Positions 6,194 through 33,353 of a stretch of DNA of 64,000 nt are shown here, one piece after another. Position numbers and translations under genes: made by a program. Numbering within the stretch: position 1 is the first letter of the stretch; each line of letters opens with the position of its first letter. The stretch lies in NCBI RefSeq assembly GCF_000282595.1, contig NZ_AKIZ01000023.1, forward strand, positions 62,001-126,000, written 5' to 3'. The notes beneath the pieces were generated by a model. That model had not been told where the DNA came from, made no database searches, and worked only from the letters and a program-made list of their open reading frames with translations. This DNA comes from Phyllobacterium sp. YR531. Its GTDB lineage: Bacteria > Pseudomonadota > Alphaproteobacteria > Rhizobiales > Rhizobiaceae.

Positions 6194-6239
6194 TCCTTTC
6201 CATTTTAAGAAACGTCGGAAAACGGCGATTGGGGGATAT

Positions 6240-6701
6240 ATGAAATCCTTGAATTTCAGTTCACGCGACATTGTTTGCGGTGCATTATTTATTCTTGTGG
6301 GCCTGTTTTTTGCGGTACAGGCATATGGGCTCGAACTGGGTACGGCCGTTCGAATGGGGCCCGGTTATTTCCCGTTTGTTCTGGCAGGAATACTCGTGAT
6401 TCTTGGAATCATCGTGATCATTCAGGGAACGCAAATCGAACACGAGCCGATGGGACCCATTGCATGGCGCGGGATGTTGTTCATCCTTCCGGCACCTGTT
6501 TTCTTCGGCCTGACTGTCCGTGGTCTTGGATTTGTACCATCATTGTTTTTGACAGCATTGATTGCGGCTTTCGCCAGCACGAAAATGCGACCCGGTATGG
6601 CGTTGCTTCTCGTGGGGGGGCTGACGATCTTCTCCGTTGTTGTCTTCAGTTATGCATTGGGGCTGCCATTCCGCCGTTTCGGCCCTTGGCTCGGACAGTG
6701 A
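6240..6701 (+). CDS. tctB: Tripartite tricarboxylate transporter small membrane subunit TctB
   Basis: A 153-residue integral membrane protein with four predicted helices, the usual size and shape of TctB. The N-terminus (SSRDIVCGALFILVGLFFAV) and the region around GPGYFPFVLAGILVILGI are typical. The ATG at 6240 follows GGGGGA by a few bases; a longer reading from 6132 would overlap the tctC 3' end and is not supported. It acts with TctA as the membrane part of the proton- or sodium-coupled carboxylate importer. The gap to tctA is only nine bases. Confidence 0.88.
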   Translation: MKSLNFSSRDIVCGALFILVGLFFAVQAYGLELGTAVRMGPGYFPFVLAGILVILGIIVIIQGTQIEHEPMGPIAWRGMLFILPAPVFFGLTVRGLGFVPSLFLTALIAAFASTKMRPGMALLLVGGLTIFSVVVFSYALGLPFRRFGPWLGQ

Positions 6702-6710
6702 GGACGCATC

Positions 6711-8213
6711 ATGGAACTCTTTAACAACCTCGTCCTCGGCTTCACCACTGCCGGTGCTCCATGGAACCTGTTCTTCTGCCTCGTAGGCGTTATCCTTGGC
6801 ACACTGATCGGCGTATTGCCCGGTATCGGTGCGACGGCAACGATTGCCATGTTGCTGCCTATTACGTTCCAGCTGGAGCCTGTTTCTTCGCTGATCATGC
6901 TGGCGGGAATCTATTACGGCGCTCAATATGGCGGCTCCACCACGGCTATCCTGATTAATATGCCGGGTGAATCGTCATCAGCCGTCACCGCCATTGATGG
7001 ATATCAAATGGCACGGAAAGGGCGAGCGGGTGCGGCGCTGGCAATTGCGGCCATCGGTTCGTTCTTCGCCGGAACTGTTTCCACGGTATTGGTCGCTGTC
7101 TTCGCGCCGCCGCTCACAGCCATAGCCTTGAAGTTCGGTTCTGCCGAATATTTCTCGCTGATGATTGTCGGTCTCGTTTCTTCCATTGCCCTTGCCCATG
7201 GCTCAGTCGTGAAAGCACTCGGGATGGTGGTTCTCGGACTGCTTCTCGGCCTTGTCGGAACAGATATTTACACCGGTACGCCTCGATTCAACTTAGGCAT
7301 TCTTGAACTTTCCGATGGGCTGAACTTCGTTGCTCTGGCGGTCGGTGTGTTTGGTATTGCGGAAATTCTTCGCAACCTTGAAAATGAACATGACCGCGAT
7401 GTCATGATCAAGAAGGTCACCAATCTTTGGCCAACCAAACAGGATTGGAAGGAAATGACGGCGCCGATATTGCGCGGCACCGCAATTGGCTCTGCTCTTG
7501 GAATATTGCCAGGTGGCGGTGCCATTCTTGCTTCCTTTGCCTCCTATACCGTTGAAAAACGCATGTCCAAGACACCTGAAGAGTTCGGTAAAGGTGCCGT
7601 TGCGGGTGTTGCAGGGCCTGAGTCAGCCAACAATGCCGGTGCCCAAACATCGTTCATTCCAATGTTGACGCTTGGTATTCCTGCAAATCCGGTTATGGCA
7701 CTAATGATCGGTGCGATGATCATTCAAGGCATCGTGCCCGGACCAAATGTGGCGACGGAACAGCCTGCACTTTTTTGGGGTATCATCGCATCGATGTGGA
7801 TCGGCAATCTTATGCTGATCCTGCTGAATCTGCCGCTGATCGGTCTATGGGTAAAACTCCTGACCATCCCCTACTATATGCTGTTTCCAGCAATCATCGC
7901 GTTCTGTTCCATTGGCGTCTACAGCGTTAACTCCAATGTTTTCGATCTCTATGCGGTCGCATTCTTCGGATTGATCGGTTATGTGCTGGCAAAGCTTCGC
8001 TGCGAACCGGCCCCCTTGTTGCTAGGCTTTGTATTGGGTCCGCTTCTCGAAGAGCATCTGCGGCGGGCAATGATCATGTCACGCGGCGATGCTACGACAT
8101 TCGTCACACGGCCGATCAGTTTGACACTGTTGTTGCTTGCAGCGGCGGTGCTCGTTGTGGTTCTGCTGCCAAGCATTCGCAAGAAGCGCGATGAGGTGTT
8201 TGTCGAGGATTAA
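6711..8213 (+). CDS. tctA: Tripartite tricarboxylate transporter large membrane subunit TctA
   Basis: The 500-residue, roughly 12-helix permease subunit that carries the substrate across the inner membrane. Conserved family pieces are GVLPGIGATATIAMLLP near residue 35, YYGAQYGGSTTAILINMPGE near residue 70, and the repeated half with GILPGGGAILASF near residue 270. A GAGGA ribosome-binding site precedes the ATG. It ends the tctCBA operon. No TctDE-type sensor pair is adjacent, so regulation is not visible here. Confidence 0.93.
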   Translation: MELFNNLVLGFTTAGAPWNLFFCLVGVILGTLIGVLPGIGATATIAMLLPITFQLEPVSSLIMLAGIYYGAQYGGSTTAILINMPGESSSAVTAIDGYQMARKGRAGAALAIAAIGSFFAGTVSTVLVAVFAPPLTAIALKFGSAEYFSLMIVGLVSSIALAHGSVVKALGMVVLGLLLGLVGTDIYTGTPRFNLGILELSDGLNFVALAVGVFGIAEILRNLENEHDRDVMIKKVTNLWPTKQDWKEMTAPILRGTAIGSALGILPGGGAILASFASYTVEKRMSKTPEEFGKGAVAGVAGPESANNAGAQTSFIPMLTLGIPANPVMALMIGAMIIQGIVPGPNVATEQPALFWGIIASMWIGNLMLILLNLPLIGLWVKLLTIPYYMLFPAIIAFCSIGVYSVNSNVFDLYAVAFFGLIGYVLAKLRCEPAPLLLGFVLGPLLEEHLRRAMIMSRGDATTFVTRPISLTLLLLAAAVLVVVLLPSIRKKRDEVFVED

Positions 8214-23666: not shown

Positions 23667-24425
23667 TTAGCCGGAAGAGTTGGCTAGGGCTGCAATCCAA
23701 GACCTGACATCATTTGCCGAATTAACCTCATATTGCGCATCGCTTTGAAAAAGCGGTGTGCCTACTCTGACAGAACGACCATTTGATCCGTTGACAAACC
23801 GGAACATTGCTTCATCTGTAAGATCATCGCCAATGGCTAGTGGGCGCCTGCCCTTATAGGGTGCCGTACTCATGAAATCTGCAATAGCAGAACCCTTATC
23901 CGTGCCGGATGGAAGCAATTCAACCACCATCTTGCCGCTCTGTAGTTTCCATCCGTCTCCTAGCTTGGAGTGGATTGTCGACAGTGTTGCCTGCACGGCT
24001 CTTTCTGCCTCTGGCACTTGCCGATAATGCACCGCAATGGCCAATCCCTTATCTTCGATGATGGTTTGCGGCCAACGCAGAGTTAACTTTTCAAGCTCCT
24101 GTCGCGCTTCATCGAGCGCTAGCCGATCGATCAGTTTCGTCGCCTGATGCCCCACACCGTCTCTCACTTCCGAGCCATGCATGCCGGCGATAGGAAATTG
24201 AAACGGCGCAAACATTGCATCTGCGGACTCAATAGAGCGCCCGGTCACCAAGGCCATTGCGCCATCAAGCTGTTTGTAAAGAGACGATAAGTGCTCGGGC
24301 AAGACTTCCGGTACAATGATGCCGTTCGGTGTGGGCGCAAGGTCTATCAACGTTCCATCAATGTCCAAAAACAGTGCCCATGCACGCAAGTCTGTTGGAA
24401 GTACGTCTTTTATTTCAGGTTTCAT
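23667..24425 (-). CDS. otsB: Trehalose-6-phosphate phosphatase
   Basis: Removes phosphate from trehalose 6-phosphate. A 252-residue HAD phosphatase: motif I FLDIDGTLIDLAP (first Asp nucleophile), motif II ALVTGRS, and C-terminal motif IGDDLTDEAMFRFV. The gene is divergent from otsA with a 149-base gap, so both halves of the pathway can respond to one control region. Converges on the sugar dehydrogenase gene. Confidence 0.95.
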   Translation of the reverse strand: MKPEIKDVLPTDLRAWALFLDIDGTLIDLAPTPNGIIVPEVLPEHLSSLYKQLDGAMALVTGRSIESADAMFAPFQFPIAGMHGSEVRDGVGHQATKLIDRLALDEARQELEKLTLRWPQTIIEDKGLAIAVHYRQVPEAERAVQATLSTIHSKLGDGWKLQSGKMVVELLPSGTDKGSAIADFMSTAPYKGRRPLAIGDDLTDEAMFRFVNGSNGRSVRVGTPLFQSDAQYEVNSANDVRSWIAALANSSG

Positions 24426-24574
24426 AATAGATATTTTTTGCCGTTTTTTGAGTTCAGCTTCTCTAATTCAACTCTACAGGAGGCAAATTGTTCAATCGCC
24501 CTGCCCAATCAAATTGGGAACCATCTGCGCCTGAACGGGTTGGACCTACCTGACACAAATGCAAGGGACTTATT

Positions 24575-25999
24575 ATGGGACGGTTGGTTGTTGTTTCAAA
24601 CCGAACGGCAAATCTCGCCAAGAAAACGCAGGCGGGTGGATTAACAGTTGGAATTGTCGACGCGTTGAAGAGCCAAGGCGGTCTTTGGATGGGATGGAAC
24701 GGGCGCATCGCTGACGATGCATCGGCAACCCAAAGCGAGAAGCATGACAATGTCACCACCTTGACAACGTCATTGACGCCTGAAGAACACGAAAAATACT
24801 ATCTCGGATTCTCTAACAAGGTGCTTTGGCCGGCCTTTCATTACCGGCTGGATTTAATGGACTACAGGACCGAATTTGCAGACAGTTATGCATCGGTCAA
24901 CGAACGGTTTGCTGCAATACTGGTTCCGCAACTTGAGCCCGACGATGTTATCTGGATTCATGACTATCATATGATCCCCATGGCTGCGGAACTGCGCAAA
25001 AATGGTTGTGAGAACAAGATCGGCTTCTTCCTGCACATCCCATTTCCTTCCGTTGATGTATTCTCGGCAGTTCCGCGGCACGAATGGCTGCGGTTCTGTC
25101 TGCTTCAATATGATCTGATTGGATTCCAGACGGTAAATGATGTTCAGAATTTCCATCGATATCTCAAGGAGCACTCCGATGCGGACATTATTTCACCAGA
25201 ACTAATACGCGTAAGAGATCGAGCAATTCATGTCGGACATTTTCCTATCGGAATTGATGTCCACCAGTTTGCCCAAACTTCCGGCGAAACCGACGATGCA
25301 GTGGATTTGGAACGTATGCGCCGGAAGATGCTGAAGCGTTTCCAGATCATATCTGCAGATCGTCTCGATTATTCGAAGGGTTTGCCGCACCGGATAAAGG
25401 CATTTCGTAAATTCCTTGATCTTTACCCGGAATATCAGGGTCGTGCGGAATATCTCCAGATTGCATCGCCCTCCAGAGAAGACGTGACTGCATATGGAGA
25501 CATCAAATCAGAGCTCGAACAGCTTGCTGGCGCAGTGAATGGCAAATTTGCAGATTTCAACTGGGCGCCCATTCAATACATAAATCGAAGTATCGCTCGC
25601 GCGCAGTTGGCTCCGCTTTTCAAATCCAGTCTGATCGGTCTCATCACCCCCTTGCGTGACGGAATGAACCTCGTCGCAAAAGAATATGTTGCCGCACAGG
25701 ACGATGCCGATCCTGGAATACTCATTCTATCCAAATTCGCCGGCGCTGCTGAAGAATTGAGCGAGGCCCTTATAGTAAATCCGTACGATATCAATGACGT
25801 AGCACAGGCAATTCACAAGGCGGCGACCATGCCTTTGTCTGAGCGGCAGTCGCGTCAACGCAAACTTTTAAAGCGAGTCACCGACCGTGATGCTCAATGG
25901 TGGCAACGTGAATATCTTGACGCACTTCTGGGGCGAACTGAGCGCCCACAGCTCATACACCAGTTCACGAAACACTCCCCAATTCACCTTACGAACTAA
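24575..25999 (+). CDS. otsA: Trehalose-6-phosphate synthase
   Basis: Joins UDP-glucose and glucose 6-phosphate into trehalose 6-phosphate (GT20). The 474-residue protein has the N-terminal loop AGGLTVGIVDALK, the acceptor site WIHDYHMIPM, the donor-binding RLDYSKGLPHRIKAF and TPLRDGMNLVAKEYVAAQ, all intact. Trehalose protects against osmotic and desiccation stress. The start at 24575 follows a weak AAGG. The TreY-like gene begins 19 bases after its stop, so the two are almost surely cotranscribed. Confidence 0.96.
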   Translation: MGRLVVVSNRTANLAKKTQAGGLTVGIVDALKSQGGLWMGWNGRIADDASATQSEKHDNVTTLTTSLTPEEHEKYYLGFSNKVLWPAFHYRLDLMDYRTEFADSYASVNERFAAILVPQLEPDDVIWIHDYHMIPMAAELRKNGCENKIGFFLHIPFPSVDVFSAVPRHEWLRFCLLQYDLIGFQTVNDVQNFHRYLKEHSDADIISPELIRVRDRAIHVGHFPIGIDVHQFAQTSGETDDAVDLERMRRKMLKRFQIISADRLDYSKGLPHRIKAFRKFLDLYPEYQGRAEYLQIASPSREDVTAYGDIKSELEQLAGAVNGKFADFNWAPIQYINRSIARAQLAPLFKSSLIGLITPLRDGMNLVAKEYVAAQDDADPGILILSKFAGAAEELSEALIVNPYDINDVAQAIHKAATMPLSERQSRQRKLLKRVTDRDAQWWQREYLDALLGRTERPQLIHQFTKHSPIHLTN

Positions 26000-26018: not shown

Positions 26019-28622
26019 ATGCCCAAAGAAAACAACGTGCCAACGTCAATCTATAGATTGCTCCTGAAAGACGGTTTTACGTTTCATCATCTGGAATCGA
26101 TAGTGCCTTACTTGAAACGATTGGGAGTTGACTGTGTCAGTGTCTCGTCGGTTTTTGAGACCAGCGATGCGGGCAATGGCAGACGCTCCTTCGATCCCGA
26201 AAAATTGGATGTAGCGTCGGGAGGGGAGCAAGGATTTGCTTTGCTCAATCAGGCACTCGCCAATGCCGGGATCAGCCTGCTGATCGATATCAATCCAAAT
26301 CAAATCTCTTTTTCTCACAAGAACGCTTGGTGGCGATCAATTCTCGAGTGGGGAAAAGATGCTGAATACGCCGCCTACTTTGACATTGATTGGAACAGGC
26401 AATTAAGCCTTCCAATATTGGAGCGGCCACTTGCTGAAGAGCTGGCTGCAGGTTCGATAACCCTGCTGTTTGATACCAACGCGAGAGCTTTGGGCATATC
26501 CTATTTGGACAGCTTCTGTCCCTTGTCGCCGCAGTCCTATAACAAGGTTCTGGCTGGGCTAGACAATGATTTGGCTGGTGGGCTCCGCAAGGCAGGAAAT
26601 GAGGCCCATCCACTTCAGGCAAACCATTTCCACGAGAGGCTGGGCAGCATCTACGATACAAGCAGCATCTCAAACCGTTTGGAACTCGCCAGGCACCTCA
26701 ATCTGCTGGCTTTTGATGCTACCTCGCTTAAGAACACCCTGACAGAACAGCATTGGGTACTGTCCACTTTAGCTGAAGCTCGCGAGTACTTGGGTTACCG
26801 GCACTCCTACGACTCGTTGTACTCTGTCGCAGCGCGGGTAGAGAATACCAAAGTGTTTGATAAGTTTCATAAAACTGCGCTGGAATTACTCCAGCTGAAC
26901 ACAGTAACCGGATTCCGCGTGAACCAAATTGATGGTCTCGCAGATCCTGCAGGTTACTTAAAACAGCTGCGTGAAGCAGCAGGTGACGAAGCTTACATCG
27001 TGACCGATAAAATTTTTCTGAATGGCGAATGCGCTCCAGATGATTGGGAGGCAGATGGAACGGCTGGCTATGATTTTATCGCTGCCACTTCAAACCTGTT
27101 CATTGATCACACGCAGCTTCCCGTTCTGGAACAGGCTCATGCGACGATCGCTGGGGTAGAGAACGAAAAGGCAAATCATTATCGCACCGCGAAATATGCA
27201 ATTCTCCAAAAAAAGTTTGCCCCGGAATTGAACGCACTGGGTGAAATGTTGCTGCAATTCACATCGGACAAGATCGATCAACTGGAGATAAGGCGGATAA
27301 TTTCACAACACATCACCGAATTGCCGGTGTTCCGTAGCTATTCGGGAGACCCGCTAAATAGTCACGCAGAAATATTGCTGGCTGCAGGACTGGAAAAATC
27401 TGAACTGCCAGAAGGCATGCTCAAAAACTTCGATACCCGCTATCAGCAGCTATCGGCGGCGGTTATGGCTCAAACAATAGAAGAGTCTTACCGTTATGAC
27501 CGAGGCCCAATATCACTCGATGAAATCACAGTTTCCTCTGCGGAGGCGGAACATCCCACAGAAGCATTTCATAGGCATATGGCTCAAAAAGCAGCCACAA
27601 TGCCATTAGGAATGAATGCAACCAACTTTTCCTATGCCACAAAATTTGGTGAAGACGCCCGTATGCGCCTTTTAGCACTCACCGAAGCACCCGCCATCTG
27701 GGCAGAATGTGTTTCCGATTGGCGCATACGTTTTGCGAGAAACATCCAGACAATTGAAACCGTAGCTGTTCCGCACCCCGAAACCGAATGGCTCATTTAT
27801 CAAACCATGGCTGCAATTTGGCCGCTCCAACTGCATCTTGATGATCAGCAGTCGCTTTTCGCGGTTCAAGAGGAGCTCACAAGCTTTGTAATAAGGGCTG
27901 TTCGGGAGATGAGAAAAGACGCCTTCTGGACGAACGTCAATCGACCGTATGAATTGGCAATCACCGAATATATCTGCTCGATCTTCGAGGATCGCGCATT
28001 TCTTGCGGAGTTTGCGGATCGGATGAAGCCTTATTGGGTGACGGGAGCACTTAACAGCCTCTCACAAACCGTCCTCAAAATGACTGCGCCCGGAGTCCCA
28101 GTCATACAGAGCGGTTGCGAAAGTTGGGATTTTGCACTTTCGCAAAGCGGTTCATCAGTTGGTGGAGGCTTTGGTGATTTGAGCACTCAACTGAATTATG
28201 CAGAGCAATCTCCACTCGTTAATCTTTTGTCGGATTGGCATTCTGGTGCAATAAAGCAGCGTGTAGCGACGATGCATCTGCGACTGCGGCAACAACATCC
28301 AAGCTTGTTCCTGCAAGGCGACTATACTCCATTGCAGGTCAGCGGCTCTTACTCTAATCATGTTTTGGCATTCATGCGCCGAAGTGAAACGGCGTCCTGC
28401 ATCATTGCTGTTCCACGCCTGACATTCGAAGCGGCCTCAAGATTTCAGGAACCTTTCATGCCTATTTCAGCTTGGGATGACACGGCTATCCATTTGCCAA
28501 AGGCGGCTTCTTCGACAACATATGAAAATATCCTCACCGGAGAAATGCTTACTCCGGATGATACCTTGCTTGTTGCCGAAGCCATGCGTGATTTTTCTAC
28601 AGCCACACTCGTCAAGCACTGA
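26019..28622 (+). CDS. TreY-like (GH13_26) protein lacking the catalytic residues
   Basis: An 867-residue protein that aligns by eye along its whole length with malto-oligosyltrehalose synthase: N-terminal SIYRLLLKDGFTFHHLE and PYLKRLGVDCVSVSS, then WWRSILEWGKDAEYAAYFDI, GTAGYDFI and the C-terminal region. The GH13 active site is gone: region I His is Q95 (DINPNQ), nucleophile Asp is N302 (FRVNQIDGL), acid/base Glu is D330 (IVTDKIF), and the His-Asp of THDTK is S538-Y539 (NFSYATKFGEDAR). The frame is intact, arguing for function without trehalose synthase catalysis. No treZ or glycogen gene is near. It may bind glucan or regulate OtsA. ATG 26019 has only a weak ribosome-binding site. Confidence 0.85.
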   Translation: MPKENNVPTSIYRLLLKDGFTFHHLESIVPYLKRLGVDCVSVSSVFETSDAGNGRRSFDPEKLDVASGGEQGFALLNQALANAGISLLIDINPNQISFSHKNAWWRSILEWGKDAEYAAYFDIDWNRQLSLPILERPLAEELAAGSITLLFDTNARALGISYLDSFCPLSPQSYNKVLAGLDNDLAGGLRKAGNEAHPLQANHFHERLGSIYDTSSISNRLELARHLNLLAFDATSLKNTLTEQHWVLSTLAEAREYLGYRHSYDSLYSVAARVENTKVFDKFHKTALELLQLNTVTGFRVNQIDGLADPAGYLKQLREAAGDEAYIVTDKIFLNGECAPDDWEADGTAGYDFIAATSNLFIDHTQLPVLEQAHATIAGVENEKANHYRTAKYAILQKKFAPELNALGEMLLQFTSDKIDQLEIRRIISQHITELPVFRSYSGDPLNSHAEILLAAGLEKSELPEGMLKNFDTRYQQLSAAVMAQTIEESYRYDRGPISLDEITVSSAEAEHPTEAFHRHMAQKAATMPLGMNATNFSYATKFGEDARMRLLALTEAPAIWAECVSDWRIRFARNIQTIETVAVPHPETEWLIYQTMAAIWPLQLHLDDQQSLFAVQEELTSFVIRAVREMRKDAFWTNVNRPYELAITEYICSIFEDRAFLAEFADRMKPYWVTGALNSLSQTVLKMTAPGVPVIQSGCESWDFALSQSGSSVGGGFGDLSTQLNYAEQSPLVNLLSDWHSGAIKQRVATMHLRLRQQHPSLFLQGDYTPLQVSGSYSNHVLAFMRRSETASCIIAVPRLTFEAASRFQEPFMPISAWDDTAIHLPKAASSTTYENILTGEMLTPDDTLLVAEAMRDFSTATLVKH

Positions 28623-28691: not shown

Positions 28692-29657
28692 CTACAGGCC
28701 GTTTGCCTTCAGTATTTCAGGGGCATTTTCTTTCGTGATGGTTTCAGTGCCGAGTACGATTTTCTTTTCGACTTTTTCACCAGCGAGCACTTTTAGCGCC
28801 TGACGAAGTCCTTCTGCACCGGGTGTGGGATAAAGGAACGTTGCTGCGAGTTCACCTTTATTTACCCACTGCACACCTTCATTAGGCAAGCCGTCAACAC
28901 CTAGAAAAAGTATGCTTTTTTCGCGCCCGGCATCCTTTGCTGCGAGGTATGCACCATATGCCATGGGATCATTGTGCCCATAAACCACTGAGATATCTTC
29001 ATGATTTCGCAGAGCAGTCGCCATTATGTTATAGGCCTGATCCTGCTTCCAATCTCCGGACTGTTTGTCCAGCAAATAAGTAATGCCCTTCTCAGCATCG
29101 GTAAATTTGTGGAAGCCGTTACTACGATCATGACTGGCTTGGGTGCCAAGACCGCCCCAAATCTCCACGACTGTTCCCTTGGCTTTGCCAGCGCCACCAA
29201 GAAGCTCCACCGCATATTTCCCCGCAGCTTCCCCGATGACAACATTATCGCCGCCAATCCATTGCGTGTACTTTTCAGTATCGACATTGCGATCAAGGAC
29301 GATCACCGGAATACCGGCATCCATAGCCTTTTCAACGACGCCAGTAAGACCAGCAGATTCCTTAGGAGAGATGAGTATTGCATCTACCTCCTGACGAATG
29401 AAATTCTCGACATCGGCAACCTGCTTTTCTGTCTTGTCCTGACCATCAGCGACAAGAAGTTCGACATTGGCATGCTTTTTTGCCTCTGCTTCCAAATCCT
29501 TGTTGAACTGTACACGCCAAGGCTCAACTGTAGTGGTTTGGCTGAAACCAATTACGTATTTGTCTTTGGCTTGCGCAACTGCACCATTGATTGCCAACGG
29601 CATCAACATGACTGTCGCCAATGCCAGCTTTGAAAAATGTCTACGGGTTATGTTCAT
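28692..29657 (-). CDS. Sugar ABC importer substrate-binding protein (RbsB/YtfQ-like)
   Basis: A periplasmic type I binding protein of 321 residues with a signal peptide (twin Arg at RRHFSK, hydrophobic LALATVMLMPLAINGAVAQA). The mature part begins YVIGFSQTTTVEPWRVQF, and DAILISPKES and GIPVIVLDRNVD are typical of pentose/galactofuranose binding proteins such as YtfQ. It is the third gene of the importer operon, 24 bases after the permease. The ligand is probably a sugar or sugar-like compound; the neighbouring DUF1349 and GntR genes do not settle it. Confidence 0.9.
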   Translation of the reverse strand: MNITRRHFSKLALATVMLMPLAINGAVAQAKDKYVIGFSQTTTVEPWRVQFNKDLEAEAKKHANVELLVADGQDKTEKQVADVENFIRQEVDAILISPKESAGLTGVVEKAMDAGIPVIVLDRNVDTEKYTQWIGGDNVVIGEAAGKYAVELLGGAGKAKGTVVEIWGGLGTQASHDRSNGFHKFTDAEKGITYLLDKQSGDWKQDQAYNIMATALRNHEDISVVYGHNDPMAYGAYLAAKDAGREKSILFLGVDGLPNEGVQWVNKGELAATFLYPTPGAEGLRQALKVLAGEKVEKKIVLGTETITKENAPEILKANGL

Positions 29658-29681
29658 TTTCTCTCTCCCTTTGATATTGTT

Positions 29682-30962
29682 TTATTTTTCCACCCGGTCT
29701 CGCATTCTCAGTTGCGATAGAAAGAACAGCCAGCCGCTCGAACGTCGCTCCTGCAGAAGCACAGCGACGATGATAATCGCGCCTTTCAAGACGAGTTGCG
29801 TATTGCTGTCGATATTGTTCAGCTGAAGAATGTTACTGAGGAAACCGAAGATCAGGACACCGACGAGTGTGCCGATCATTGATCCGCGACCGCCCATCAG
29901 GCTGGTGCCGCCGATGACAACCGCTGCAATCGCGTCAAGCTCCAGCCCCATTCCAGCATCAGGCTTCCCTTGACGATATTGCGCGACATAGAGAATGCCA
30001 GCCAAGGCAGCGAGATAGCCGGATATGGCATAGACCGTAATTTTCACCCGCCAGACGGGTACCCCCGCCAGCCGGGCAGATTCTTCATTGCCACCTATCG
30101 CGTAGACGTAGCGTCCAAATTTCGTGAACTTCAGGACGATCCAGAAAAGGAAAATCACTCCGGCAAATATAACGCCAGGAACAGGAATGACACCGAGTAT
30201 CAATGAGCGAAGAAACTCGAAATCTTCCGTAGCATTGCTGCCAGTATAAACCGGCCATACGGCGGTGTTTTGGCCGGCGGTCAAGCGAGCAATGCCCAAA
30301 CCTGCTACCATCATGGCAAGTGTCACAATAAAAGGTTGCAGCCTTCCTCCAACAATGACCAATCCATTGATCATGCCAAGCATAAAACCAACTGCAGGAA
30401 CAACCAACAACACGAGCAGTACACCTGCTTTGCCCTCCGACCCCATCGCCATGCAAAATGCGATGGCAAGGGCTGTCACGACTGATGCGGCCCCTATGAT
30501 CCTGGGATTAGCAAATGAACCCGAGGGTGAATTTGCCTGAGAGTTCCCTTTAAGTTTCGCTGCAAAGCTCAGCACTCCAAAGAGGCATACGAACGCCAGA
30601 ATAAAAAGTGCCGGGGTTCCGATTGAATAAGCTGCCGACCAGCCTTCGTTGGTCAAAAGCATGGCGCAAACCACCGAACCCAATGCAAGCACCGAGCCAA
30701 CGGAAAGATCGATACCGGCGATCAAAATAACTAACGTCATTCCGACTGCGGTTATGCCTGTTACCGATATTTGACGAAAGACATCGGAAAGATTGCCGAA
30801 TGACAAAAAGATATTATTGCCTTTTGACGAAATCGGCGAAGACAAAACTCCGACCAGAAACAGCAAAACCAAACCCCAATAGAGCTTCGTATGCTTTAAA
30901 ACGGTTTTCAGGCGCTCGGAAGCTCCAGAGGATACACTGATCTGCTCGCTTAACTTGCTCAC
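29682..30962 (-). CDS. Sugar ABC importer permease (RbsC family) with enlarged loop region
   Basis: A 426-residue inner-membrane permease. The RbsC-like core is clear: GITAVGMTLVILIAGIDLSV, GRLQPFIVTLAMM and the docking region VIGGTSLMGGRGSMIGTLVG. It is about 90 residues longer than ribose permease because of an insert of about residues 120-190 that carries extra hydrophobic stretches (AASVVTALAIAFCMAM). The same enlarged form is known in a subset of sugar importers. Start overlaps the ATPase stop by four bases. Confidence 0.9.
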   Translation of the reverse strand: MSKLSEQISVSSGASERLKTVLKHTKLYWGLVLLFLVGVLSSPISSKGNNIFLSFGNLSDVFRQISVTGITAVGMTLVILIAGIDLSVGSVLALGSVVCAMLLTNEGWSAAYSIGTPALFILAFVCLFGVLSFAAKLKGNSQANSPSGSFANPRIIGAASVVTALAIAFCMAMGSEGKAGVLLVLLVVPAVGFMLGMINGLVIVGGRLQPFIVTLAMMVAGLGIARLTAGQNTAVWPVYTGSNATEDFEFLRSLILGVIPVPGVIFAGVIFLFWIVLKFTKFGRYVYAIGGNEESARLAGVPVWRVKITVYAISGYLAALAGILYVAQYRQGKPDAGMGLELDAIAAVVIGGTSLMGGRGSMIGTLVGVLIFGFLSNILQLNNIDSNTQLVLKGAIIIVAVLLQERRSSGWLFFLSQLRMRDRVEK

Positions 30963-32515
30963 GCAGCTTCTCCTTGAAGCCGTACACCCAATGGTGTGGC
31001 GAGTTCCATTATGCGTTCTTCAGAAAACTCTTCGCTGCCAACGATTCCCGTCGCCCTGCCCTCGCACATGACGAGGATGCGGTTCGACAAAGACAGGAGT
31101 TCGGGTAACTCGGAGCTCACCATCACAATCGCAACGCCAGTCGCAGCGAGTTGCTTTAGCAGATCATAAATCTCCTCTTTTGCACCCACATCAATTCCGC
31201 GAGTGGGCTCGTCCAGCAAGACGACGCGCGGCCTTGTTTCGAGCCATTTGCCAAGGACAATTTTTTGCTGGTTGCCACCACTCAATTCTTCAATTTTTTG
31301 GTCTGGCCCCTGGCAACGGACGCGCATCGATTGGATCATACGTCGCGTTACAGCATTTTCACGCAAACGGCTTATCCAACCGAGCGGAGCGAGCTGCGGA
31401 AGCGAAGGGAGCACGGCATTTGAACGAATGTCAGCTTGCATGAGCAGACCGCTGCCTTTCCTGTCCTCTGTAAGAAAAGCAATACCATTCGTCACCGAAA
31501 CGCGCGGCGTCAGGGATTGTACGTTGGAAGAGATTCCACCGCGCGAAATTGCCCCCGAGCGCTGGCCGATCGGAGCACCGAATATAAGTTCGAGCACCTC
31601 AGTCCGACCCGATCCAAGCAACCCGCCAATACCGAATATTTCTCCGGCGTGAACCTCAAAGCTTACATCATCAACGACCTTATGCATTCGCCCGCGCGAA
31701 TTGGGTTTTTGCAGGCCAATATTCCTTACTGAAAGCGCTACCGGATTGCCCGAGACGGTACTTTTGCTTTCCTGTGGCTTCAATTCACGCCCAACCATCA
31801 TACGAATAACATCGCGCTCGCTGACTTCACTTGAGCGTCGTGTAGCAATAAAATTACCGTCTCTCAGAACAGTAATCTTGTCTGCTAGGGCAAATACCTC
31901 GCTCATTCGGTGCGAGATATAGAGTATTGCAACCCCTTGCTTTGCCAGAGCCCTCACAAACCCAGCCAAACGTTGCGCTTCAGCTTCTGACAGCGCAGAT
32001 GTTGGTTCATCAAGGACGAGTACATCGGCGTTGAGTGATAGCGCCCGCGCAATTTCCACCAGTTGCTGCTCACCAACTCTCAACGTTTCAACATCGGCCC
32101 GCGCATCAATATCTATACCGAAGCGGGCGAGTATCTCGGCACTTCTGTTTTCAATTTCCCTATAGTCGATAAACAGCCCGGCTTTGAGCGGTTCGCGCCC
32201 GAGAAAAATATTCTCGGACACGCTCAAGCTTGGAATGAGATTAAGCTCTTGATGGATGATGGCGATACCGTCGCGTTCGGCTTCTTTTGGTGTAGCAAAG
32301 TCCACTTCGCGTCCACGAACTTCCATATGTCCCGCGCTTCGCTGATGCACACCACTCAGAATTTTTACGAGTGTTGATTTTCCTGCGCCGTTTTCACCCA
32401 TGATCGCATGGATTTCACCCGGGTAAACGTCGAGATCAACGCTCCGTAAAGCTATCACGTGAGCAAAAGACTTACTGACGGCACGCAGAGAAATAACAGG
32501 TTTCGAACTTTCCAA
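30959..32515 (-). CDS. Sugar ABC importer ATPase, two fused ABC domains (RbsA/YtfR-like)
   Basis: About 518 residues with two ABC domains. The first has Walker A GENGAGKST and Walker B DVLVLDEPTSALSEAEAQR; the second has signature LSGGNQQKIVLGKWL and DEPTRGIDVGAKEEIYDLL, as usual for carbohydrate (CUT2) importers. I set the start at TTG 32515 because a strong GGGAGG lies eight bases upstream and the product then begins at SSKPVISLRAVSKSF; a longer reading would enter the regulatory region. First gene of the operon. Confidence 0.9.
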   Translation of the reverse strand: MESSKPVISLRAVSKSFAHVIALRSVDLDVYPGEIHAIMGENGAGKSTLVKILSGVHQRSAGHMEVRGREVDFATPKEAERDGIAIIHQELNLIPSLSVSENIFLGREPLKAGLFIDYREIENRSAEILARFGIDIDARADVETLRVGEQQLVEIARALSLNADVLVLDEPTSALSEAEAQRLAGFVRALAKQGVAILYISHRMSEVFALADKITVLRDGNFIATRRSSEVSERDVIRMMVGRELKPQESKSTVSGNPVALSVRNIGLQKPNSRGRMHKVVDDVSFEVHAGEIFGIGGLLGSGRTEVLELIFGAPIGQRSGAISRGGISSNVQSLTPRVSVTNGIAFLTEDRKGSGLLMQADIRSNAVLPSLPQLAPLGWISRLRENAVTRRMIQSMRVRCQGPDQKIEELSGGNQQKIVLGKWLETRPRVVLLDEPTRGIDVGAKEEIYDLLKQLAATGVAIVMVSSELPELLSLSNRILVMCEGRATGIVGSEEFSEERIMELATPLGVRLQGEAA

Positions 32516-32554
32516 AAAATGTTCCTCCCAAAACATTCTTTTAAAGCTAGTGTG

Positions 32555-32564
32555 TAACATGTTA
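32555..32564. promoter_or_regulatory. Palindrome TAACATGTTA, candidate GntR operator
   Basis: A perfect 10-base palindrome between the divergent importer ATPase start (32515) and GntR start (32649), the place expected for an FCD-type GntR repressor site that controls both. Confidence 0.45.
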
Positions 32565-32648
32565 GATGTTGGAGAAGGAGAGTCAATTGCTTTTGCAAAA
32601 GACTTGAATTGCTTTAATGCCAGCTGGAATTCAGGGGGAGTTTCACAC

Positions 32649-33353
32649 TTGCAACCACGCTTCTCGAGCAAAAACTACAAGGAACAAAAAGTAGTCTCCG
32701 CGACCCGTAAAGATCAGGTCTACGGCATACTCCGACAAGCAATTATCTCATCGCAGCTTGCCCCCGGGGAAGCAATACGGAAAGAACTCGTCGCGAACCA
32801 GCTTGGAGTCTCCAGAACACCGGTCAGCGAGGCCATCAGCAGGCTCGCTGGTGAAGGTCTTGTGGAAATCTATCCGCAAGCCGGGACATTTGTAGCGCGG
32901 CTTTGGTTGGACAAGATTGAAACTGCGCAATTCGTGCGTGTTGCACTTGAAACCGCTGCCATCCGACGCGCGGCAATAAACAGTACAGAAGAAATCGCGG
33001 CACGGCTTCGCGACAACCTTGATGATCAACGTAAAGCGGCTGAAATATTGGATTTCGAGCAGTTTTACGAGTTGGATGAGGCGCTGCATGACATGATCTG
33101 TGACGCGTCCGGGTTCGTAGGCCTACGCGAAATTGCTGCCAAAGAACGCAGCCAGATCGACCGCGTCAGGCGACTACTCCTGCATTACGAAACAAGGATG
33201 AGTGAAACTCTGATTGAACACGAAGCCATTATCTCGGCTATCACAATGCGTAACCCCGATCTCGCGGCAAAAACAATGGAGGATCATATCTCGAAAATGG
33301 GTATCATGCTTCTTCAACTTCGGGAAAAAAGACCGGAATTATTCGGAAGCTGA
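32649..33353 (+). CDS. GntR family regulator (FadR/FCD subfamily)
   Basis: A 234-residue regulator: winged helix at about residues 20-85 (YGILRQAIISSQLAPGEAI, then NQLGVSRTPVSEAISRLAGE) and a C-terminal FCD all-helical ligand domain with the metal-type pattern of Asp/His side chains (DEALHDMI, EHEAIISAI, MEDHISKM). TTG 32649 was chosen because GGGGGAG is eight bases upstream. Divergent from the sugar importer it probably controls. Its 3' end overlaps the DUF1349 gene by 15 bases. Confidence 0.9.
   Translation: MQPRFSSKNYKEQKVVSATRKDQVYGILRQAIISSQLAPGEAIRKELVANQLGVSRTPVSEAISRLAGEGLVEIYPQAGTFVARLWLDKIETAQFVRVALETAAIRRAAINSTEEIAARLRDNLDDQRKAAEILDFEQFYELDEALHDMICDASGFVGLREIAAKERSQIDRVRRLLLHYETRMSETLIEHEAIISAITMRNPDLAAKTMEDHISKMGIMLLQLREKRPELFGS

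What the first reader, a model, noticed from the sequence alone, without database searches (positions are those of the whole stretch)
26019..28622. TreY-like protein encoded behind otsA has lost the GH13 catalytic set but keeps an intact frame
Four conserved GH13 positions are changed: region I His to Q95, nucleophile Asp to N302, acid/base Glu to D330, and the His-Asp pair to S538-Y539, while the surrounding TreY sequence remains recognisable for 867 codons without a stop. Loss of all three catalytic carboxylates in an intact long gene suggests selection for another function, such as glucan binding or control of trehalose-6-phosphate synthase. The gene starts 19 bases after otsA and no treZ or glycogen gene is near. 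This could be a new trehalose-associated pseudoenzyme class.
Basis: partly seen in the sequence, partly recalled or inferred. Interest (0 to 1): 0.78.

Follow-up and report, generated by a model that had tools for sequence, protein, structure and literature searches.

The report
Dead TreY enzyme beside trehalose synthase
In a Phyllobacterium-like group of bacteria, a gene that looks like a trehalose-making enzyme has lost its catalytic residues but is kept intact beside the real trehalose-phosphate synthase gene, which suggests it now has a non-catalytic job in trehalose production.

Summary
Window 26019-28622 (+) encodes an intact 867-aa TreY homologue, 19 nt after otsA. It is not a one-off. 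Of 20 genomes of the genus group (which includes Phyllobacterium), 13 carry it, all 13 changed at the three catalytic positions and directly behind otsA; 13 of the 14 genomes with otsA have it. All 93 other TreYs read keep D/E/D. The 13 form one clade; five close pairs give dN/dS 0.06-0.11. The window genome shows no TreZ, TreS or glycogen synthase GlgA, and GlgA was found in none of the 20, so a glucan role is unlikely. An EcfG-like stress promoter motif precedes otsA in 12 of 13. Most likely it is a TreY pseudoenzyme kept as a non-catalytic partner or regulator of OtsA. Pseudoenzyme status is near certain by sequence; the OtsA partnership is inferred. Against it: one genome keeps this OtsA type without it, and no interaction was tested. 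The one named relative seen (P. zundukense) is annotated treY. Origin is unresolved; structure prediction failed.

The parts
26019..28622 (+). TreY-like pseudoenzyme gene (867 aa)
   Evidence: intact frame; TIGR02401 565.4 bits; catalytic positions changed
26301..26303 (+). codon 95, Gln at the GH13 region I His (1iv8 H90)
   Evidence: Q in 11 of 13, H in G012, R in G011
26922..26924 (+). codon 302, Asn at the nucleophile Asp (1iv8 D228)
   Evidence: N in 13 of 13 genus copies, D in 93 of 93 other TreYs
27006..27008 (+). codon 330, Asp at the acid/base Glu (1iv8 E255)
   Evidence: D in 13 of 13, E in 93 of 93 others
27633..27638 (+). codons 539-540, Tyr-Ala at the region IV His-Asp (1iv8 H442-D443)
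   Evidence: Y in 12 of 13 (H in G002), then A in 6 and T in 7 of 13; alignment
24575..25999 (+). otsA, trehalose-6-phosphate synthase, looks intact
   Evidence: PF00982 413.5 bits; TIGR02400 544.5 bits, a little under its cut-off of 564.85, as for every genus OtsA; 102 of 120 outgroup near-invariant columns kept in all 14 clade members
23667..24425 (-). otsB, trehalose-6-phosphate phosphatase, divergent from otsA
   Evidence: PF02358 120.2 bits; same place in all 13 loci (window; 12 others)
24517..24541 (+). EcfG-like stress promoter motif GGAAC-N17-GTT, 58 nt before otsA
   Evidence: sequence read; at -56 to -62 in 12 of 13 loci; 9 of 256 ORF upstreams as background, otsA sites included, with a slightly narrower pattern; consensus recalled

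Best explanation
It is a TreY homologue that has lost TreY catalysis and is kept as a dedicated accessory protein of the OtsA-OtsB trehalose pathway. Shown: the catalytic positions are changed in the whole clade; the frames are intact and the gene is under purifying selection in the pairs that could be measured; every copy found follows otsA; TreZ and GlgA are not found in the window genome. Inferred: it is made together with OtsA from a general-stress promoter, binds OtsA (or its substrates or product through the altered TreY pocket) and stabilises it or adjusts its activity, much as the Tps3/Tsl1 subunits are thought to do in the yeast trehalose synthase complex.
For: 13 of 13 copies directly downstream of otsA with otsB divergent, 5 to 50 nt after the otsA stop at the start codon nearest the conserved N-terminal motif (19 or 37 nt in the window), with a further possible start overlapping otsA by 4 nt in six; 13 of 14 genus genomes with otsA have it and 0 of 6 without (Fisher p 0.0002, not corrected for shared ancestry); same branching groups as OtsA; dN/dS 0.061-0.080 (NG86) or 0.071-0.108 (YN00) in five close pairs; TreZ and over-cut-off TreS only in the two genomes that also hold a canonical TreY; no GlgA match in 20 genomes; OtsA itself looks active.
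Against: G009 keeps an OtsA of the same clade, with otsB and the promoter motif, but no pseudo-TreY, so OtsA does not strictly need it. Operon linkage can mean shared regulation only. No interaction was tested. It changes about twice as fast as OtsA by dN/dS. The window's own dN/dS could not be measured because dS to its nearest relative is saturated.
Confidence: 0.5

Rival explanations
1. It is an enzyme with changed chemistry: the pocket around the retained R300, D305, D330 and K331 acts on another sugar of trehalose metabolism, by a mechanism that does not need the Asp nucleophile.
For: N302 and D330 are fixed in 13 of 13 copies although the 12 others share only 41-70% identity with the window protein; the four GH13 segments are more alike than the rest (0.75 against 0.50, nine thinned copies); R300, D305, K331, K542, E545 and D546 kept in 13 of 13.
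Against: Nucleophile and transition-state Asp are both gone, and other positions such as the Tyr-Asp at 55-56, K485, D489 and the DPDN stretch near 709-712 are lost in all 13. The segments are about as alike in canonical TreYs (0.78 against 0.46, first 40 of 63 rows), so conservation there may be structural.
Confidence: 0.15
2. It is a sugar sensor or stress protein that acts on something other than OtsA and is only co-expressed with the operon.
For: EcfG-like motif before otsA in 12 of 13 loci; G009 shows that OtsA can live without it.
Against: Not seen away from otsA: 13 of 13 copies follow it.
Confidence: 0.2
3. It binds glycogen or maltooligosaccharides and brings trehalose synthesis to them.
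For: TreY ancestry.
Against: No GlgA match in 20 genomes, no TreZ or TreS match in the window genome; many conserved TreY residues lost. GlgE, GlgB and GlgP were not searched.
Confidence: 0.05
4. It is a decaying gene carried along in the operon.
For: Faster change than OtsA; absent from G009.
Against: 13 of 13 frames intact, 861-898 codons counted from the start nearest the N-terminal motif; dN/dS well under 1 in the pairs that gave a value; 79 of 163 near-invariant TreY columns still fixed in all 13.
Confidence: 0.05
5. It is still a working TreY with catalytic residues placed elsewhere.
For: Full-length profile match over 877 columns.
Against: Five PDB sequences (four named MTSase or TreY, one hypothetical glycosyltransferase) align consistently at the motifs; no TreZ found to use the product.
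Confidence: 0.03

Closest known systems
TreY, maltooligosyltrehalose synthase (TIGR02401; PDB 1iv8, 6lcu, 5zcr)
   Same: Full-length homology: 565.4 bits to TIGR02401, hhalign probability 100 over 877 columns at 33% identity.
   Different: Nucleophile, acid/base, transition-state Asp and two His changed; no TreZ found in the window genome; sits with otsA.
Yeast Tps3/Tsl1, putative regulatory subunits of the trehalose synthase complex (PMC9635654, passages read)
   Same: Proteins without defined catalytic activity kept for T6P synthesis; the resemblance is in the proposed role only.
   Different: Tps3/Tsl1 resemble Tps1/Tps2 themselves and interact with them by two-hybrid; this protein is a GH13 TreY homologue and binding is untested.
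Non-catalytic GH13 proteins such as plant isoamylase 2 (PMC12510319, title and abstract start in a listing) and the 4F2hc/rBAT transporter chains (recalled)
   Same: GH13 fold kept after loss of catalysis, working as partner subunit.
   Different: Other GH13 subfamilies, other partners.

Membership tests
TreY (EC 5.4.99.15) | Scores over the TIGR02401 cut-off over the full length | tested here: met
   565.4 bits against 498.65, residues 8-865
TreY (EC 5.4.99.15) | Asp nucleophile, Glu acid/base, Asp stabiliser | tested here: not met
   N302, D330, A540
TreY (EC 5.4.99.15) | Region I His and region IV His | tested here: not met
   Q95 and Y539
TreY (EC 5.4.99.15) | TreZ partner in the genome | tested here: not met
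   no TIGR02402 match at E 1e-20 in the window genome; 2 of 20 in the genus
TreY (EC 5.4.99.15) | Makes maltooligosyltrehalose | not testable with these tools
   needs an assay
Pseudoenzyme | Homology to an enzyme family with loss of essential catalytic residues | tested here: met
Pseudoenzyme | Intact frame under purifying selection | tested here: met
   13 of 13 frames intact; dN/dS 0.06-0.11 in five close pairs of one subclade; not measurable for the window copy
Pseudoenzyme | No residual activity | not testable with these tools
   needs an assay
Non-catalytic T6P-synthase subunit (Tps3/Tsl1-like role) | Physical association with the T6P synthase | not tested
   only operon linkage and co-occurrence
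Non-catalytic T6P-synthase subunit (Tps3/Tsl1-like role) | Derived from the TPS/TPP fold | tested here: not met
   it is a TreY homologue

The most novel reading that the evidence does not exclude
A bacterial lineage turned a dead GH13 enzyme of a rival trehalose pathway into a dedicated regulatory or sensing subunit of OtsA: the altered TreY pocket reads a sugar or sugar phosphate and sets T6P synthesis under stress, a bacterial counterpart, built from an unrelated fold, of the yeast Tps3/Tsl1 subunits.
Probability: 0.35. Interest if true: 0.75.

Novelty: new variant of a known kind. Interest (0 to 1): 0.56.

Why it matters
The one named relative examined (P. zundukense WP_262290624.1) is annotated treY, malto-oligosyltrehalose synthase, so pathway reconstruction from such names would credit these bacteria with a TreYZ route, although TreZ was found in only 2 of 20 genus genomes. 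If the protein binds OtsA, it would be a non-catalytic partner of a bacterial T6P synthase made from a GH13 enzyme. Eight searches of the held library listed no such report by title or abstract start; several lists were cut (20 of 81, 20 of 42, 12 of 58) and the library lacks most subscription papers. The genus offers a natural experiment: genomes with pseudo-TreY alone, with pseudo-TreY plus canonical TreY and TreZ, and one with OtsA but no pseudo-TreY.

Tried and rejected
Structure: AlphaFold2 of the window protein with one relative gave mean pLDDT 36.9 and pTM 0.28, unusable, so no fold search was run; all structural statements rest on sequence alignment to solved chains.

More rows for that alignment: a scan of viral contigs with canonical TreYs found no relative.

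Repurposed-pocket test: in the four GH13 segments, lost residues were replaced by a new fixed residue in 6 of 8 columns against 7 of 32 elsewhere (Fisher p 0.008). I do not lean on this: two of the six (F543, M549) also occur in solved archaeal-type chains such as 1iv8; without them the count is 4 of 6, not re-tested. (One search counts 40 lost columns; one search counts 41, one of them a column where the window protein has a gap.)

Origin: the 13 form one clade (SH-aLRT 100) but on a long branch (1.13 and 0.99) joining next to the base of the canonical rows, so whether it came from a rhizobial treY is open. These two trees are quick ones without bootstrap.

Relatives outside the genus: family (394 genomes), order (397) and phylum (398) searches with the 13-member profile gave nothing between 731 bits and 1394 bits, the lowest of the five genus copies. 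The samples overlap and are drawn from larger groups, and at most two candidates per genome were scored, so a second copy in a genome could be missed. Residues were read in 61 of the 124 non-genus genomes with a match, and in 30 of the 31 loci L151-L154 and L156-L182 (L160 dropped as a repeat genome). L114, which lacks region I, was left out of the trees.

dN/dS: 11 of 78 pairs computed; two (G000-G006, G000-G014) gave no value for this gene; the four more distant pairs gave 0.05-0.17.

OtsA stem: the OtsA clade sits on a branch of 0.77, but other branches in that tree are as long, so I do not call it coupled evolution.

Promoter literature: one search found no paper with all three terms; the EcfG consensus is recalled.

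Full report
What is there. Window 26019-28622 (+) is one open frame of 867 codons. It matches TreY over its whole length (TIGR02401, 565.4 bits, cut-off 498.65; solved TreYs). It starts 19 nt after otsA (24575-25999), and otsB (23667-24425) lies divergent upstream of otsA.

The catalytic positions. The 13-member profile aligned to PDB 1iv8, with residues counted, gives: H90 to Q95, D228 to N302, H229 to Q303, E255 to D330, H442 to Y539, D443 to A540. D228, E255 and D443 as catalytic residues of this enzyme are recalled. D330 is still an acid, one carbon shorter; the other two acids are gone.

Spread. Among 20 genomes of the genus group (G007 is 88% complete), 13 hold a copy with N302 and D330 and with A or T at 540 (13 of 13); Q95 in 11 of 13 and Y539 in 12 of 13. 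Two of these 13 genomes (G005, G010) hold in addition a canonical TreY with D/E/D. The genus group includes Phyllobacterium: contig G019:C1 has the length and the gene position of P. zundukense plasmid NZ_CP104969.1. The window organism itself is not named. Controls: 61 of 61 out-of-genus family TreYs and the 2 in-genus second copies and 30 of 30 others keep D/E/D; region I could not be read in one (L114). Searches of 394, 397 and 398 genomes at family, order and phylum level (overlapping samples, at most two candidates scored per genome) found no further member: no match between 731 bits and 1394 bits, the latter the lowest of the five genus copies.

Operon. In 13 of 13 loci the gene follows otsA on the same strand, and otsB is divergent. 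At the start codon nearest the conserved N-terminal motif the distance to the otsA stop is 5 to 50 nt; six copies also have a possible start 4 nt inside otsA. In the P. zundukense record the annotated distance is 5 nt. OtsA occurs in 14 of 20 genus genomes, and 13 of these have the pseudo-TreY; G009 has the same otsB-otsA arrangement without it. G002 has a second OtsA of another clade; its contig ends about 290 nt behind that gene, and the genome shows only one pseudo-TreY, the one behind the first OtsA. The OtsA tree and the TreY tree show the same groups, G014 with the window and G006, G005 with the five close ones, and G011 with G002, G012 and G018, which fits long joint inheritance. G009's place inside the OtsA clade has moderate support (92/77).

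Selection. Five close pairs give dN/dS 0.061-0.080 by NG86 and 0.071-0.108 by YN00; OtsA in the same pairs gives 0.030-0.044 and 0.037-0.059. The gene is constrained, about half as tightly as otsA. These pairs come from one subclade; for the window copy dS is saturated. Of 163 columns near-invariant in 63 canonical TreYs, 79 are fixed to the same residue in all 13, 41 are lost in all 13 and 43 are mixed. Lost columns include not only the catalytic ones but also residues around 48-56, K485, D489, F492, R494, N501 and the DPDN stretch near 709-712 (alignment there less sure). I read this as a dismantled sugar site on a kept scaffold. OtsA of the clade keeps 102 of 120 such columns in 14 of 14 and the motifs looked for are present in 13 of 13.

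Metabolic setting. In the window genome there is no match at E 1e-20 to TreZ, TreS or GlgA. Over the genus: TreZ 2 of 20, TreS over its cut-off 2 of 20 (G005 and G010, the two with canonical TreY; a weaker match in G014), GlgA 0 of 20. GlgE, GlgB, GlgP and TreT were not searched. OtsA-OtsB is thus the trehalose-making route seen in the window genome, and a role on glycogen is unlikely.

Regulation. A motif GGAAC-N17-GTT lies 56-62 nt before the homologous otsA start in 12 of 13 loci; G006 has it with one mismatch (window copy read). G009 has it too. Background is 9 of 256 ORF upstreams, otsA sites included. This resembles the general-stress EcfG promoter of alphaproteobacteria (recalled; the search found no paper).

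How it probably works. The evidence supports a pseudoenzyme with a kept function tied to OtsA. The most likely function is a non-catalytic partner that stabilises or adjusts OtsA under stress, possibly by sensing a sugar with the altered pocket. The nearest parallel in role is Tps3/Tsl1 of yeast, putative regulatory subunits that interact with Tps1 and Tps2; the double deletion left 55-88% of wild-type trehalose (PMC9635654, passages). They come from another fold, so this is likeness of role, not membership. G009 shows that the partner is dispensable in at least one lineage.

Limits. No structure, no interaction data, and long-branch uncertainty about origin. The literature statement rests on searches, read as listings, several of them cut, with passages read in PMC11046441, PMC10497880 (nothing used) and PMC9635654.

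Noticed in passing
window 24517-24541: EcfG-like general-stress promoter motif before otsA, kept at about the same distance in 12 of 13 genus loci.
   Followed up: partly
L131 (G009), 6196-7605: OtsA of the same clade with otsB but without the pseudo-TreY; a natural loss or a lineage that never gained it.
   Followed up: partly
L132 (G002 contig C37), 1069-6183: A second, different OtsA near the end of a 14-kb contig, behind an otsB-like frame whose C-terminal end reads unlike OtsB, with a transposase-like ORF nearby (by look of the sequence, no family search).
   Followed up: no
L034 and L035 (G005, G010): Canonical TreY with TreZ and TreS on the same contig within about 12 kb in two genomes that also keep the pseudo-TreY, so the two coexist.
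   Followed up: partly
OtsA residues 260-261 in the window (24575-25999): Gly-Val, near-invariant in 30 other OtsAs, is Ser-Ala in all 14 OtsAs of this clade, just before the DRLDYSKG segment.
   Followed up: no
window 28692-32671 (-): Genes that look like a ribose-type ABC transporter (by look, no family search), convergent with the pseudo-TreY; also beside it in G014 but not found in the other 11 loci.
   Followed up: no
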